Source: Longimicrobium sp. (GTDB lineage: Bacteria; Gemmatimonadota; Gemmatimonadetes; Longimicrobiales; Longimicrobiaceae). From it: DNA of 34,935 bases. Under the pieces are notes generated by a model. That model was not told where the DNA came from and did not search any database. It saw only the letters and a list, made by a program, of their open reading frames with translations. The number at the start of each line of letters is the position of its first letter. Positions within the stretch are counted from its first letter, which is position 1. The stretch covers positions 1 to 34,935 of the forward strand of contig DASVTZ010000138.1 in NCBI GenBank assembly GCA_036387335.1. The letters are read 5' to 3'. Positions 21,947 through 25,100 of this stretch are shown here, one piece after another. The translations under genes and the position numbers were made by a program.

Positions 21947-22191
21947 CCCCCTATGTACTGTGTCGCTGGTGCTACAGGAACGCGCGTAGCCGATAGCGGC
22001 GGCGACGCGGAAGGCGGTCGTTCGGTCGACCGACGCGCTGGGGCACCGCTCCAACTCCTGACCTGACGTCTGGGGCACGGAAGGTCGTACACGCCGGGCG
22101 GGCGGCGCCACCCCCTCCGTCCGCCACGTCCGCTGGTCCATTAACGGTGACACCTTCTGTGAATGGGGAGCTCCGCCGGGACCGAAATCGT

Positions 22192-22290
22192 CACCGATCG
22201 GCCACCGCCCGGACCGGTTTACGCTTTAAGCTTGCAGCCCCCAAAAAGCACGTATAGCTTCGAAACGAACGCCAATCCGAGGAGGCCGAG
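22192..22290 (+). promoter_or_regulatory. Cassette leader/promoter, copy 1
   Basis: This block recurs almost unchanged before each of the three small ORFs: CGATCGGCCACCGCC, then ACCGGTTT, AAGCTTGCAG, a C/A tract, GCACGTATAGCTTCGAA. A candidate promoter is TTGCAG (22232-22237), 15 bases, TATAGC (22253-22258). GAGGAGG then precedes the ATG at 22291. Similarity to copy 2 extends upstream to about 22110 (GAATGG-GAGCTCCG and neighbouring sequence). Confidence 0.6.
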
Positions 22291-22476
22291 ATGAAGGAGA
22301 CGAAGATCCGGGAGTTCATCCCGCCGATGTGGCCGCCGGACAACTTCACCCTGGACGAAGCGAGACAGGCGCTACGAGAGGTTGAGGCGGAGGATGAGGC
22401 GCGCCGCGCGGCGAAGCGCAAGCGCTCGCGTGCGGCATCGAAGCAGGCGCCGCAGGACGGCGGCGAGGATCCATGA
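22291..22476 (+). CDS. Small IPPMWPPD-motif protein, cassette copy 1
   Basis: The 61-residue product starts after GAGGAGG. Residues 1-27 (MKETKIREFIPPMWPPDNF and TLDEA) are strongly conserved in all three copies. The second half is charged: REVEAEDEARRAAKRKR, then an acidic end. The first half may form a short structured element; the tail is probably a helix or disordered. The last four bases overlap the start of the 214-residue gene (ATGA), implying coupled translation and a stoichiometric partner. I recognise no family. By analogy with coupled two-gene modules it could be an antitoxin, adaptor or regulator (inference). Confidence 0.82.
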   Translation: MKETKIREFIPPMWPPDNFTLDEARQALREVEAEDEARRAAKRKRSRAASKQAPQDGGEDP

Positions 22477-23117
22477 TCGCTCGCAGCTACGACCGGAACG
22501 TGTTCATCAACTGCCCGTTCGATCCCGAGTACCGGCCTCTGTTCGAGGCCATTGCTTTTACCACCGCGGACTGTGGGTACCACCCGCGATCAGCCCTGGA
22601 GGTAGACGACAGCAGCCAGGTCCGAATCGAGAAGATCACCGGGATCATCAGCGAATCCCGCCTGGCAGTGCACGACATCTCCCGCACTCAGCTTGACCGC
22701 GGCACTCGCCTCCCGCGCTTCAACATGCCTCTCGAGTTGGGCATCTTTCTGGGCGCGAAGTCGTTTGGGTCAGGCGATCAAAAGCGGAAGGTGGCGGTCA
22801 TCCTGGACACCGACCGCTACCGCTATCAGAAGTTCATCTCCGATATCGCGGGGCAGGACATCCGTGCACATAGTGGCCGTGTCGATCACGTTGTTCACGA
22901 AGTGCGCGACTTCCTCTCGACCCACCGCGAAGCCGGGGTGTTCCTGCCTGGCGGCGAAAAGTTCGTGGAACGCCGCCGCCGGTTCGCCGGCAGCATTCCA
23001 CTGACCTGCCGCAAGCTTCACCTGGACTCCGCCAGGCTGACTTTCCGCGACCTCATGGGTCTGATCTTCAACTGGCTTGAGAGGCACCCGCTCAAGGCAG
23101 CCGACACCGTCCACTAA
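22473..23117 (+). CDS. TIR-/deoxyribosyltransferase-like protein, cassette copy 1
   Basis: The 214-residue product begins MIARSYDRNVFINCPFD, a beta strand and turn like the start of TIR-like and nucleoside 2-deoxyribosyltransferase-like domains. It continues with RIEKITGIISESRLAVHDIS (50-70), resembling the strand ending in a conserved Asp in such folds. Then comes LPRFNMPLELGIFLGAK (80-96), whose Glu88 in an N-x-P-x-ELG setting is where those families keep the catalytic Glu. DTDRYRYQKFISDIAGQDIRAH (112-133) and a helical C-terminus follow (FRDLMGLIFNWLERHP). I recall similar hypothetical proteins in many bacteria but cannot name a characterised member. NAD or nucleotide cleavage is a hypothesis. 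Its start overlaps the small ORF. Confidence 0.8.
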   Translation: MIARSYDRNVFINCPFDPEYRPLFEAIAFTTADCGYHPRSALEVDDSSQVRIEKITGIISESRLAVHDISRTQLDRGTRLPRFNMPLELGIFLGAKSFGSGDQKRKVAVILDTDRYRYQKFISDIAGQDIRAHSGRVDHVVHEVRDFLSTHREAGVFLPGGEKFVERRRRFAGSIPLTCRKLHLDSARLTFRDLMGLIFNWLERHPLKAADTVH

Positions 23118-23211
23118 AGGGCTCGAACTCTCTCTCCTCTGCCTACCACGTTCGCTGCTCCATAACGCCTGCGCTTTCCGCGAATGGAGCTCCGTAGGAA
23201 CTGAAATTCGC

Positions 23212-23308
23212 CACTGATCGGCCACCGCCCGAACCGGTTTACGACTGAAGCTTGCAGCCCCCAAAAAGCACGTATAGCTTCGAAATGAACGCCAACGAGG
23301 AGGCCGAG
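23212..23308 (+). promoter_or_regulatory. Cassette leader/promoter, copy 2
   Basis: Nearly identical to the copy 1 leader: TTGCAG at 23252-23257, the same 15-base spacer, TATAGC at 23273-23278, GCTTCGAA, then GAGGAGG ahead of the ATG at 23309. The gap upstream (23118-23211) also aligns with sequence upstream of copy 1 (CTCCATAACG, GAATGGAGCTCCGT), showing that the duplicated unit included it. Confidence 0.6.
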
Positions 23309-23494
23309 ATGAAGGATATGAAGATACGCGAGCTCATCCCACCGATGTGGCCGCCAGACAGCTTCACGATAGAGGAAGCGCTGAAGGCTTGGGACGAGGT
23401 TGACGCGGAGAACGAGGCTCGGCGCAATGCACCGCGCAAGCGCCCGCGTGCGGCATCGAAGAAGGTCGTACCCACTCGGGGCGAGGGTCCATGA
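23309..23494 (+). CDS. Small IPPMWPPD-motif protein, cassette copy 2
   Basis: This 61-residue protein has the same length as copy 1. The N-terminal half is conserved (MKDMKIRELIPPMWPPDSF then TIEEA), while the charged tail differs (NEARRNAPRKRPRAASKK). An in-frame ATG at 23252 would start within the promoter block, so the ATG after GAGGAGG at 23309 is chosen. It overlaps the next gene by ATGA, as in copy 1. Conservation of the motif half with drift of the tail indicates selection on the IPPMWPPD segment. Confidence 0.82.
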   Translation: MKDMKIRELIPPMWPPDSFTIEEALKAWDEVDAENEARRNAPRKRPRAASKKVVPTRGEGP

Positions 23495-24135
23495 TCGCTC
23501 GTGGCTACGATCGCAACGTGTTCATCAACTGCCCTTTCGACTCCTTGTACCGGCCTCTGTTCGAGGCCATCGCTTTTGCTACGGCAGACTGCGGGTATCA
23601 TCCGCGCTCAGCCCTCGAGGTCAACGATAGCAGCCAGGTGCGTATCGAAAAGATCACGGGGATCATCAGCGAGTCGCGCCTGTCTGTGCACGACATTTCG
23701 AGAACACAGCTCGATCGCGGCACGCGGCTCCCGCGGTTCAACATGCCGCTCGAGCTCGGCATCTTCCTTGGTGCGAAGTCCTTTGGATCCGGAGATCACA
23801 AGCGGAAGGTAGCGATCATCCTGGACACGGATCGGTTTCGCTACCAGAAGTTCATCTCCGACATCGCCGGACAGGACATCCGTGCCCACGGCGGCAGAAT
23901 CGATGAAGCGATCCGTGAGGTACGCGACTTTCTCTCCACCTACCGTGAGGCCGGGGTGTTCCTGCCGGGCGGGGACAAGATCGTAGATAGGTACCGCCAG
24001 TTCGTAGCCGACCTTCCCACGACCTGCCGCAAGCTCCACCTGGATCTGAACAGACTGAACTTCCGCGACCTATCGAGCCTGATCTTCACCTGGTTGAAGA
24101 GGCACCCCATGGAGTCAGTGGCGGCTGAAGCGTGA
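23491..24135 (+). CDS. TIR-/deoxyribosyltransferase-like protein, cassette copy 2
   Basis: The 214-residue product is the same length as copy 1 and nearly identical to it for the first 160 residues (VFINCPFD, VRIEKITGIISESRL, RFNMPLELGIFLGAK, YQKFISDIAGQDIRAH). The C-terminal 50 residues diverge (DRYRQFVADLPTTCRKLHLDLNRL), which may reflect different partners or targets. Many third-position differences between copies 1 and 2 leave the protein unchanged, suggesting that both have been under selection since duplication. All residues I would propose as catalytic (Asp17, Asp68, Glu88) are kept. Confidence 0.8.
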   Translation: MIARGYDRNVFINCPFDSLYRPLFEAIAFATADCGYHPRSALEVNDSSQVRIEKITGIISESRLSVHDISRTQLDRGTRLPRFNMPLELGIFLGAKSFGSGDHKRKVAIILDTDRFRYQKFISDIAGQDIRAHGGRIDEAIREVRDFLSTYREAGVFLPGGDKIVDRYRQFVADLPTTCRKLHLDLNRLNFRDLSSLIFTWLKRHPMESVAAEA

Positions 24136-24163
24136 CCGGCCGGCGGGCGGATTTCACACCGAA

Positions 24164-24265
24164 ACGCCACCGATCGGCCACCGCCTGGACCGGTTTGGAC
24201 TCGAAGCTTGCAGCCCCTGAAAAGCACGTATAGCTTCGAAAACAAACGCCAACAGGGAGGCTGAT
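24164..24265 (+). promoter_or_regulatory. Cassette leader/promoter, copy 3
   Basis: Third copy of the leader: TTGCAG 24208-24213, 15-base spacer, TATAGC 24229-24234, GCTTCGAA, and GGGAGG before the ATG at 24266. It lacks most of the upstream segment shared by copies 1 and 2; the gap after copy 2 is only about 30 bases before the block starts. Confidence 0.6.
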
Positions 24266-24460
24266 ATGAAGGAAGAGAGGATGCGCGAGCTCATCCCACC
24301 AATGTGGCCGCCGGACAGCTTCACGATGGAGGAAGCGATGGCGGCCGTAAAGAAGGTGAAAGCGGCAAGGGAGGCGCGGGAGAAAGCAAAAGGCACCCGC
24401 ACCCGAGGCTCGAACAAGTCCGTTTTGGATGGCGAGCCCACGGGTGGCGACGATCCATGA
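24266..24460 (+). CDS. Small IPPMWPPD-motif protein, cassette copy 3
   Basis: This 64-residue protein begins MKEERMRELIPPMWPPDSF then TMEEA, keeping the conserved half. The tail is more basic (VKKVKAAREAREKAKGTRTR) and three residues longer than in copies 1 and 2. It overlaps the following gene by ATGA. It remains intact although its partner gene is frameshifted, so it may still be expressed and might act on the products of copies 1 and 2. Confidence 0.8.
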   Translation: MKEERMRELIPPMWPPDSFTMEEAMAAVKKVKAAREAREKAKGTRTRGSNKSVLDGEPTGGDDP

Positions 24461-25100
24461 TCGCTCGCCGGTACGATCGAAACGTGTTCATCAACTGCCC
24501 TTTCGATCCTGCGTACCGCCCTCTGTTCGAGGCGATCGCCTTCGCCACCGCCGATTGCGGATATCATCCACGCTGTTCGCTGAAGGTGGACGACAGCAGT
24601 CAGGTCAGAATCGAGAAGATCACCGGCATCATCCGCGAGTCTCGCCTGGCGGTGCACGACATCTCTCGGACCCAGCTCGACCGCGGTACGCGGCTGCCAC
24701 GGTTCAACATGCCCCTGGAGCTTGGCATCTTCCTGGGCGCGAAGGCGTTTGGCTCTCCGGATGACCAGAATAAGGTCGCGATCATCCTGGACACCGACCG
24801 CTATCGGTACCAGAAGTTCATCTCCGATATTGCGGGGCAGGACATCCGCGCGCACGGTGGCATGACGGACGAAGCGATTCGGGAGGTGCGCGATTTTCTC
24901 TCGACGCATCGCGAGCCAGGGGTAATCCTTCCGGCGGAGATAAGATCGCGGAGCGTTACCGCTGGTTCCACAACGATCTACCGGAGTTGTGCCGCGAGGT
25001 GCACCTGGATACCGCAAGGCTGAACTTCCGCGACCTGACGAGCCTCGTCTTCGCATGGGTCGAGCAGCACCCGGTGACGCCGGCGGCGAACGGCCGGTAG
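24457..25100 (+). pseudogene. TIR-/deoxyribosyltransferase-like protein, cassette copy 3, frameshifted
   Basis: The first 160 codons match copies 1 and 2 (RNVFINCPFD, RIEKITGIIRESRL, RFNMPLELGIFLGAK, KFISDIAGQDIRAH). Where copies 1 and 2 read LPGG, copy 3 has CCGGCGGAG at 24931-24939 instead of CCGGGCGG, one G fewer. The frame then ends at 25023, giving 188 residues. Adding one base back restores the usual C-terminus (RLNFRDLTSLVFAWVEQHP) to a TAG at 25100 and exactly 214 residues. The truncated product keeps the presumed catalytic core but loses the C-terminal helical part. It could be decay, phase variation, inactivation of a costly protein, or a sequencing error. Confidence 0.82.

What the first reader, a model, noticed from the sequence alone, without database searches (positions are those of the whole stretch)
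22110..25100. Three tandem copies of an unrecognised two-gene cassette
Seen directly: three successive units of about 1 kb, each with the same leader block, a 61-64 residue IPPMWPPD-motif protein, and an ATGA-overlapping 214-residue protein. The copies differ at many silent positions but keep protein length and motifs, so the array is not a recent duplication artefact. Operonic coupling, tandem expansion and accessory-like base composition resemble defence or toxin/partner modules. I cannot tie the pair to a named system. A conserved small partner with a variable charged tail, next to a candidate NAD- or nucleotide-acting enzyme, is a plausible new module.
Basis: partly seen in the sequence, partly recalled or inferred. 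Interest (0 to 1): 0.88.

Follow-up and report, generated by a model that had tools for sequence, protein, structure and literature searches.

The report
Plug-in TIR NADase immune gene pair
Three tandem copies of a bacterial gene pair that probably form an immune or suicide module: a predicted NAD-destroying enzyme and a small partner whose conserved 30-residue tag is, in other bacteria, attached to interchangeable sensor parts, including known anti-phage alarm enzymes.

Summary
The array is real: three ~1-kb units share a leader, a 61-64 aa gene and an overlapping ~214 aa gene. One correction: the large gene of unit 3 carries a one-base deletion, so only two are intact. The large protein is a distant relative of the TIR NADases of CBASS and Pycsar. 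Its model has the TIR/DNPH1 fold, and profile alignment places its invariant R82, N84, E88 and D124 on the SfSTING NAD site (R78, N80, E84, D110). It occurs patchily in at least ten phyla, on some plasmids and viral contigs. The small partner is nearly obligatory: 62 of 87 loci have a recognisable partner next to the large gene (E<=0.01), none when adjacent ORFs are shuffled. A profile built only from upstream partners finds it directly downstream in Poribacteria (E down to 1e-12). IPPMWPPD is the local form of a ~30-residue motif, elsewhere joined to DUF2188, HU-like, GIY-YIG-like, ThsB-TIR and CBASS cyclase domains. Best reading: a mobile immune/abortive module, a TIR NADase effector plus a docking adaptor carrying exchangeable sensors. 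Contact, activity and direction of regulation are inferred; a fused structure prediction did not settle docking. No published description was found in the library searched.

The parts
22119..22290 (+). leader of unit 1 (conserved core with AGCACGTATAGCTTCG at 22247-22262)
   Evidence: leader alignment; genome-unique 16-mer
22291..22476 (+). small adaptor 1, 61 aa
   Evidence: ORF; motif profile hit E 5.3e-12
22473..23117 (+). TIR-like NADase-type protein 1, 214 aa, intact
   Evidence: model pLDDT 92.4
23147..23308 (+). leader of unit 2 (16-mer at 23267-23282)
23309..23494 (+). small adaptor 2, 61 aa
   Evidence: motif hit E 1.5e-11
23491..24135 (+). TIR-like NADase-type protein 2, 214 aa, intact
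   Evidence: 81% identical to copy 1
24160..24265 (+). leader of unit 3 (16-mer at 24223-24238)
24266..24460 (+). small adaptor 3, 64 aa
   Evidence: motif hit E 2.0e-13
24457..25100 (+). TIR-like NADase-type gene 3, frameshifted by a one-base deletion near 24933; open frame ends at 25023, conserved sequence continues in another frame to 25100

Best explanation
Each unit is a mobile two-gene immune/abortive module. The large protein is a stand-alone TIR-fold effector that, when switched on, cleaves NAD+ (or a related nucleotide) and stops the cell. The small protein is its dedicated regulatory partner. A conserved ~30-residue segment (a strand R-x-[IV]-K-x-P-P-K-x-G followed by an amphipathic helix [ST]-x-x-x-[IV]-x-x-A-[VI]-x-x-[VI]; locally IPPMWPPDxFTxxEAxxA) docks on the effector. 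The rest of the small protein, a charged tail here and whole domains elsewhere, senses the trigger and releases or clusters the effector. The window holds three paralogous copies, kept by selection, one of which is now broken. Shown by computation: the array, homology to CAP12/Pycsar TIRs, invariant NADase-site residues, conserved pairing in both gene orders, and modular fusions of the motif. Inferred: NADase activity, direct docking, direction of control, anti-phage role.
For: Enzyme: 33 of 65 family members match PF10137 CAP12/Pycsar TIR, best E 8.5e-5. Profile-profile match to CAP12 TIRs E 1.7e-5, probability 78%. Model pLDDT 92.4; best structural matches DNPH1 Z 13.7, SPARTA TIR 12.7, AbTir 11.9, SfSTING 11.6. 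R82, N84, E88 and D124 are invariant in 65 sequences and align with SfSTING R78, N80, E84 and the mate's D110, the NAD site in PMC9402430. PycTIR, whose TIR part matches the same profile, depletes NAD+ in phage defence (PMC11224242). Pairing: 62/87 loci have an adjacent partner at E<=0.01; the only 3 non-adjacent hits among 16,180 ORFs are second partner copies; 0 in 5 shuffles. Out-of-sample: the upstream-only profile finds 25 downstream partners at E<=0.01, down to 1.7e-12. Whole genomes: 18 of 21 large genes have an adjacent motif. Annotated plasmids show a small CDS directly upstream. Modularity: motif + CD-NTase (L055, PADLOC cyclase 1.3e-127), motif + ThsB TIR (L104, PF08937 6.9e-23; L077, ThsB 1.3e-18), DUF2188, HU. 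L054 (plain partner) and L055 (cyclase-fused partner) sit on sister effectors. Mobility: 17 plasmids, 7 viral contigs, patchy (8 of 200 genomes of the phylum).
Against: No assay exists. The window's own large proteins miss PF10137's cut-off. The fold match to the nucleotide hydrolase DNPH1 scores slightly above TIRs. AF2 of a natural in-frame small+large read-through did not dock the motif with confidence (motif pLDDT 44-73). Nearest-neighbour genes are mostly ordinary; R-M, pAgo, AbiJ and Schlafen appear in a minority, with no matched background rate. The window partners are near-neutral in charge (0 to +2), unlike the rest of the family (median +13), so a nucleic-acid-sensing tail is not general.
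Confidence: 0.6

Rival explanations
1. Plain type II toxin-antitoxin: the large protein is a constitutively toxic NADase and the small protein is its antitoxin, with the conserved segment as neutralising peptide; extra domains on the partner are antitoxin DNA-binding or accessory parts.
For: Small basic gene overlapping and upstream of the enzyme, multicopy, patchy, on plasmids, with orphan partners. A NAD-depleting TA system is known (NatR-NatT, PMC11535050).
Against: The partner can be downstream and can be a full CBASS cyclase or ThsB enzyme, unusual for an antitoxin. No DNA-binding domain was recognised in most partners; HU only in L050.
Confidence: 0.25
2. The large protein is a nucleotide-sanitising or salvage enzyme (DNPH1/deoxyribosyltransferase-like), with the small protein a stabilising subunit, not a defence module.
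For: Top structural match is DNPH1, Z 13.7; same superfamily.
Against: Active-site pattern R-x-N-x3-E plus a later S-D-x-x-G matches CAP12/Pycsar TIRs; 33/65 members match the TIR family and no deoxyribosyltransferase family is among the 11 families listed. Patchy distribution (8/200 genomes) and motif fusions to immune enzymes do not fit housekeeping.
Confidence: 0.1
3. The constant large protein is the sensor or core, and the motif-bearing partners are the effectors recruited to it, as in effector-associated-domain systems.
For: Some partner domains are known immune enzymes (TIR, CD-NTase) or nuclease-like; the motif is terminal and multicopy, as EADs are (PMC8195603).
Against: Most partners, including all in the window, are 55-120 aa with no recognised catalytic domain, while the large protein keeps a complete invariant active site. 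The motif is not detected in the large protein, so recruitment is not homotypic.
Confidence: 0.15

Closest known systems
CAP12 / PycTIR TIR effectors (Pfam PF10137; SfSTING, PycTIR)
   Same: Fold, R-x-N-x3-E active site and the S/T-D-x-x-G aspartate from the mate; profile match E 1.7e-5.
   Different: No STING or cyclic-nucleotide-binding receptor domain; 205-215 aa stand-alone; has a separate small partner; window proteins do not pass the Pfam cut-off.
Thoeris ThsB
   Same: A ThsB TIR domain is fused to the partner motif in L104 (Poribacteria) and L077 (Rhodopila; motif weak there).
   Different: ThsB is not the constant component; ThsA was not looked for systematically; absent from the window.
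CBASS
   Same: L055 pairs the effector with a CD-NTase that carries the docking motif.
   Different: The effector has no known cyclic-oligonucleotide receptor; most loci have no cyclase next to the effector.
Effector-associated domains (EAD principle, Kaur et al. 2020/2021, PMC8195603)
   Same: Short terminal module joined to many unrelated domains, several copies per genome.
   Different: Only ~30 residues, not a death-like helical fold; not present on the effector itself, so heterotypic.
NAD-depleting toxin-antitoxin NatR-NatT (PMC11535050)
   Same: A two-gene NAD-depleting module, per its abstract.
   Different: Cited from its title and abstract only; its fold and partner were not compared here.

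Membership tests
CAP12/PCTIR TIR NADases (PF10137) | TIR-like Rossmann fold | tested here: met
   AF2 pLDDT 92.4; SPARTA TIR Z 12.7, SfSTING Z 11.6
CAP12/PCTIR TIR NADases (PF10137) | Catalytic R-x-N-x3-E and mate aspartate | tested here: met
   R82, N84, E88, D124 invariant in 65 sequences and aligned with SfSTING R78, N80, E84, D110
CAP12/PCTIR TIR NADases (PF10137) | Match above the curated Pfam cut-off | tested here: not met
   Window proteins and own genome: no match above cut-off; some relatives match weakly, best 8.5e-5
CAP12/PCTIR TIR NADases (PF10137) | Attached nucleotide receptor (STING or CNBD) | tested here: not met
   214 aa with only a TIR-like part (to ~155) and two C-terminal helices
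CAP12/PCTIR TIR NADases (PF10137) | NAD+ hydrolysis | not testable with these tools
   needs an assay
Thoeris | ThsB with ThsA effector in one locus | tested here: not met
   Window pair has no PADLOC Thoeris hit; ThsB appears only as motif fusion in L104, L077
CBASS | CD-NTase in the operon | tested here: not met
   Absent in the window pair; present only as motif fusion in L055
Type II toxin-antitoxin | Small gene overlapping or adjoining the enzyme gene | tested here: met
   ATGA overlaps; small gene adjacent in most relatives
Type II toxin-antitoxin | Toxicity neutralised by the small protein | not testable with these tools
   needs expression tests
Effector-associated domains | Terminal small module fused to diverse domains, multicopy | tested here: met
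Effector-associated domains | Homotypic: same module on both partners | tested here: not met
   Motif profile does not hit the large ORFs at E<=1

The most novel reading that the evidence does not exclude
A plug-in bacterial immune architecture: one constant stand-alone TIR NADase and a ~30-residue docking motif that tethers exchangeable detectors (charged tail, DUF2188, HU, GIY-YIG-like, a 591-aa unknown, ThsB TIR, CBASS CD-NTase) to it, so that second-messenger enzymes are physically wired to the effector instead of acting only through a diffusible signal.
Probability: 0.38. Interest if true: 0.9.

Novelty: new variant of a known kind. Interest (0 to 1): 0.76.

Why it matters
TIR NADases are central to bacterial, plant and animal immunity, and well-studied ones carry their own receptor domain or take a diffusible signal. 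A widespread TIR-like family with no Pfam, NCBIfam or PADLOC name, nearly always partnered with a short tag that is also grafted onto CBASS and Thoeris signal enzymes, would show a simple way to rewire immune sensors by swapping a peptide. The tag can also be used as a search handle to find new sensor domains.

Tried and rejected
Direct family searches of the window proteins: no hit in Pfam, NCBIfam, PADLOC, PHROGs or PDB sequences; a PADLOC SIR2 match at 0.02 was discarded. A search for the literal W-P-P motif in relatives failed because IPPMWPPD is local; position-based ORF extraction worked. AF2 on a natural in-frame small-stop-large stretch of L015 (stop read as Q) gave a moderately confident motif helix but no confident docking, so it is inconclusive; motif-only rows were dropped because MAFFT aligned them to the enzyme. 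Neighbour surveys gave some defence genes but no clear island and no background rate. Weak motif hits in Gemmatimonadota at E 0.001-0.01 were set aside: the one examined (G000:C218) is ribosomal protein L1. Phage GenBank records: no match. Foldseek E-values against the PDB were all above 1e-3 and mixed with flavodoxin-like folds; the structural call rests on VIA Z-scores plus the active-site alignment.
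Full report
OBSERVATION. The three units are present. Small genes: 22291-22476 (61 aa), 23309-23494 (61 aa), 24266-24460 (64 aa). Large genes start at 22473, 23491 and 24457, each overlapping the small gene by ATGA. Units are 76-79% identical in DNA and share a leader; its core 16-mer occurs only at the three leaders in the whole genome. The copies are a single clade (100/99) nearest to relatives in the same genus, with dS 0.9-1.4 and dN/dS 0.05-0.14 for the large gene: old paralogues under purifying selection. 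The third large gene is broken by a one-base deletion near 24933. Its downstream part is still conserved in another frame, so the lesion is recent or an assembly error. Array GC is 0.61 against 0.69 for the window. A fourth, 55%-identical large gene lies on contig C44.

THE LARGE PROTEIN. The window proteins have no hit in Pfam, NCBIfam, PADLOC, PHROGs or PDB sequences. A scan of the genome collection found 347 relatives, the best 80 kept, in Gemmatimonadota, Acidobacteriota, Poribacteria, Latescibacterota, Verrucomicrobiota, Planctomycetota, Pseudomonadota, Thermodesulfobacteriota, Nitrospirota, Cyanobacteriota, Bacteroidota and others. They are rare within the window's phylum: 8 of 200 genomes. 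Seventeen plasmids and seven viral contigs carry one; GenBank phages none. With 65 sequences aligned, 33 members match PF10137, the TIR domain of CAP12/Pycsar effectors, at up to 8.5e-5. The family profile matches an independent set of such TIRs at E 1.7e-5, probability 78%. The model is confident (pLDDT 92.4, pTM 0.90) and has the TIR/DNPH1/deoxyribosyltransferase fold (DNPH1 Z 13.7, SPARTA TIR 12.7, AbTir 11.9, SfSTING 11.6). The paper on SfSTING names R78, N80, E84 and, from the dimer mate, D110 as NAD-site residues (PMC9402430). I mapped these on the solved chain. The family's R82, N84, E88 and D124, all invariant in 65 sequences, align with them. So an NADase-type active site is complete; activity itself is inferred.

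THE SMALL PARTNER. In most relatives a small ORF ends within a few bases of the large start. Sequences differ greatly but share about 30 residues, R-x-[IV]-K-x-P-P-K-x-G-x-[VFL]-[ST]-x-x-x-[IV]-x-x-A-[VI]-x-x-[VI]. A profile made from 36 upstream partners, searched over 16,180 six-frame ORFs of the loci, also found the partner directly downstream of the large gene, almost always in Poribacteria (25 loci at E<=0.01, best 1.7e-12), where no upstream partner was found (L011, not a poribacterium, has one on each side). This is an out-of-sample test, since no downstream sequence was in the seed. After iteration 62-63 of 87 loci have an adjacent partner at E<=0.01. The only three non-adjacent hits are second partners further along the same locus, and shuffled adjacent ORFs give none. 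Some of the remaining loci have an adjacent small ORF that looks motif-like by eye (e.g. L019, L043, L094), which I do not count. In 17 whole genomes 18 of 21 near-full-length large genes have an adjacent motif, and 22 of 28 motif hits are next to a large gene or its fragment. Annotated plasmids list small CDSs directly upstream, with weak but positive motif scores.

MODULARITY. The rest of the partner varies: a DUF2188 domain (L020 2.8e-15, L045, L047), a HU-type domain (L050 3e-6), a GIY-YIG-like domain (L023 3e-4, below Pfam's cut-off), a 591-aa protein without Pfam match (L033), a CBASS CD-NTase (L055: PF21654 3.3e-10; PADLOC cyclase 1.3e-127) and ThsB TIR domains in two lineages with opposite order (L104, motif N-terminal, PF08937 6.9e-23; L077, motif C-terminal and weak at E 0.07, ThsB 1.3e-18). 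The effectors of L054 (plain partner) and L055 (cyclase partner) are near neighbours in one supported pair (95/89), so the attached part changes while the enzyme hardly does. L104 is an orphan, away from the large gene of its genome, beside a type I R-M system. Of 67 partners up to 130 aa, 66 are basic, median net charge +13; those of the window are near neutral.

MECHANISM. Best reading: a TIR NADase effector held or switched by a docking adaptor that carries the sensor. The step from conserved pairing to physical docking is an inference. A structure prediction of a natural in-frame read-through of L015 gave a helix for the motif (pLDDT about 73) but no confident placement. Whether the partner is an inhibitor (antitoxin-like) or an activator is open; the enzyme-fused partners favour a sensor role and the small overlapping partners fit both.

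CONTEXT AND LIMITS. The window array sits between ordinary genes (alpha/beta hydrolase, Ppx/GppA, FAD monooxygenase), not in a defence island. Among 140 nearest neighbours of relatives some are R-M, pAgo, AbiJ or Schlafen, but no background rate was computed. Two more motif-bearing places in the window's genome are a motif gene followed by what looks like a decayed large gene (C114) and an orphan motif gene just upstream of an Abi_2 gene (C42).

NOVELTY. TIR NADase effectors are a known kind; the idea of small recruiting modules is known as the EAD principle (PMC8195603). I found no description of this pair or motif in the papers searched, which cover open-licence papers only. I therefore call it a new variant of a known kind, with a wider plug-in architecture as the unexcluded novel case.

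Noticed in passing
L055:4640-5911 (Poribacteria): A CBASS-type CD-NTase carries the docking motif at its N-terminus and lies directly downstream of the TIR-like gene, with no other CBASS gene recognised beside it.
   Followed up: partly
L104:3566-4171 (-), L117: Orphan motif fused to a ThsB TIR domain, close to a type I R-M system and far from the genome's TIR-like gene.
   Followed up: partly
L033:4639-6411 and L035: Motif fused to a ~560-aa region without any Pfam or PADLOC match; a possible new sensor domain.
   Followed up: no
L138:1535-2846 (window genome contig C42): Orphan motif gene about 125 bp upstream of an Abi_2 (AbiD/F-like) gene on the same strand.
   Followed up: partly
L137:4350-5000 (window genome contig C114): Motif gene followed by what looks like a decayed remnant of the large gene.
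   Followed up: partly
L139 (window genome contig C218): Ribosomal protein L1 segment PKAGTVTMDVARAVREIKAG resembles the motif; shows that hits weaker than about 1e-3 can be chance.
   Followed up: yes
window 22225-22275, 23245-23295, 24200-24250: Leader holds a short inverted repeat (TCGAAGCT...AGCTTCGA in unit 3, weaker in 1 and 2) around a possible promoter; may be an operator.
   Followed up: no
L132, L133 (viral contigs): Viral contigs carry the TIR-like gene with a DUF2188-like-plus-motif partner directly upstream.
   Followed up: partly
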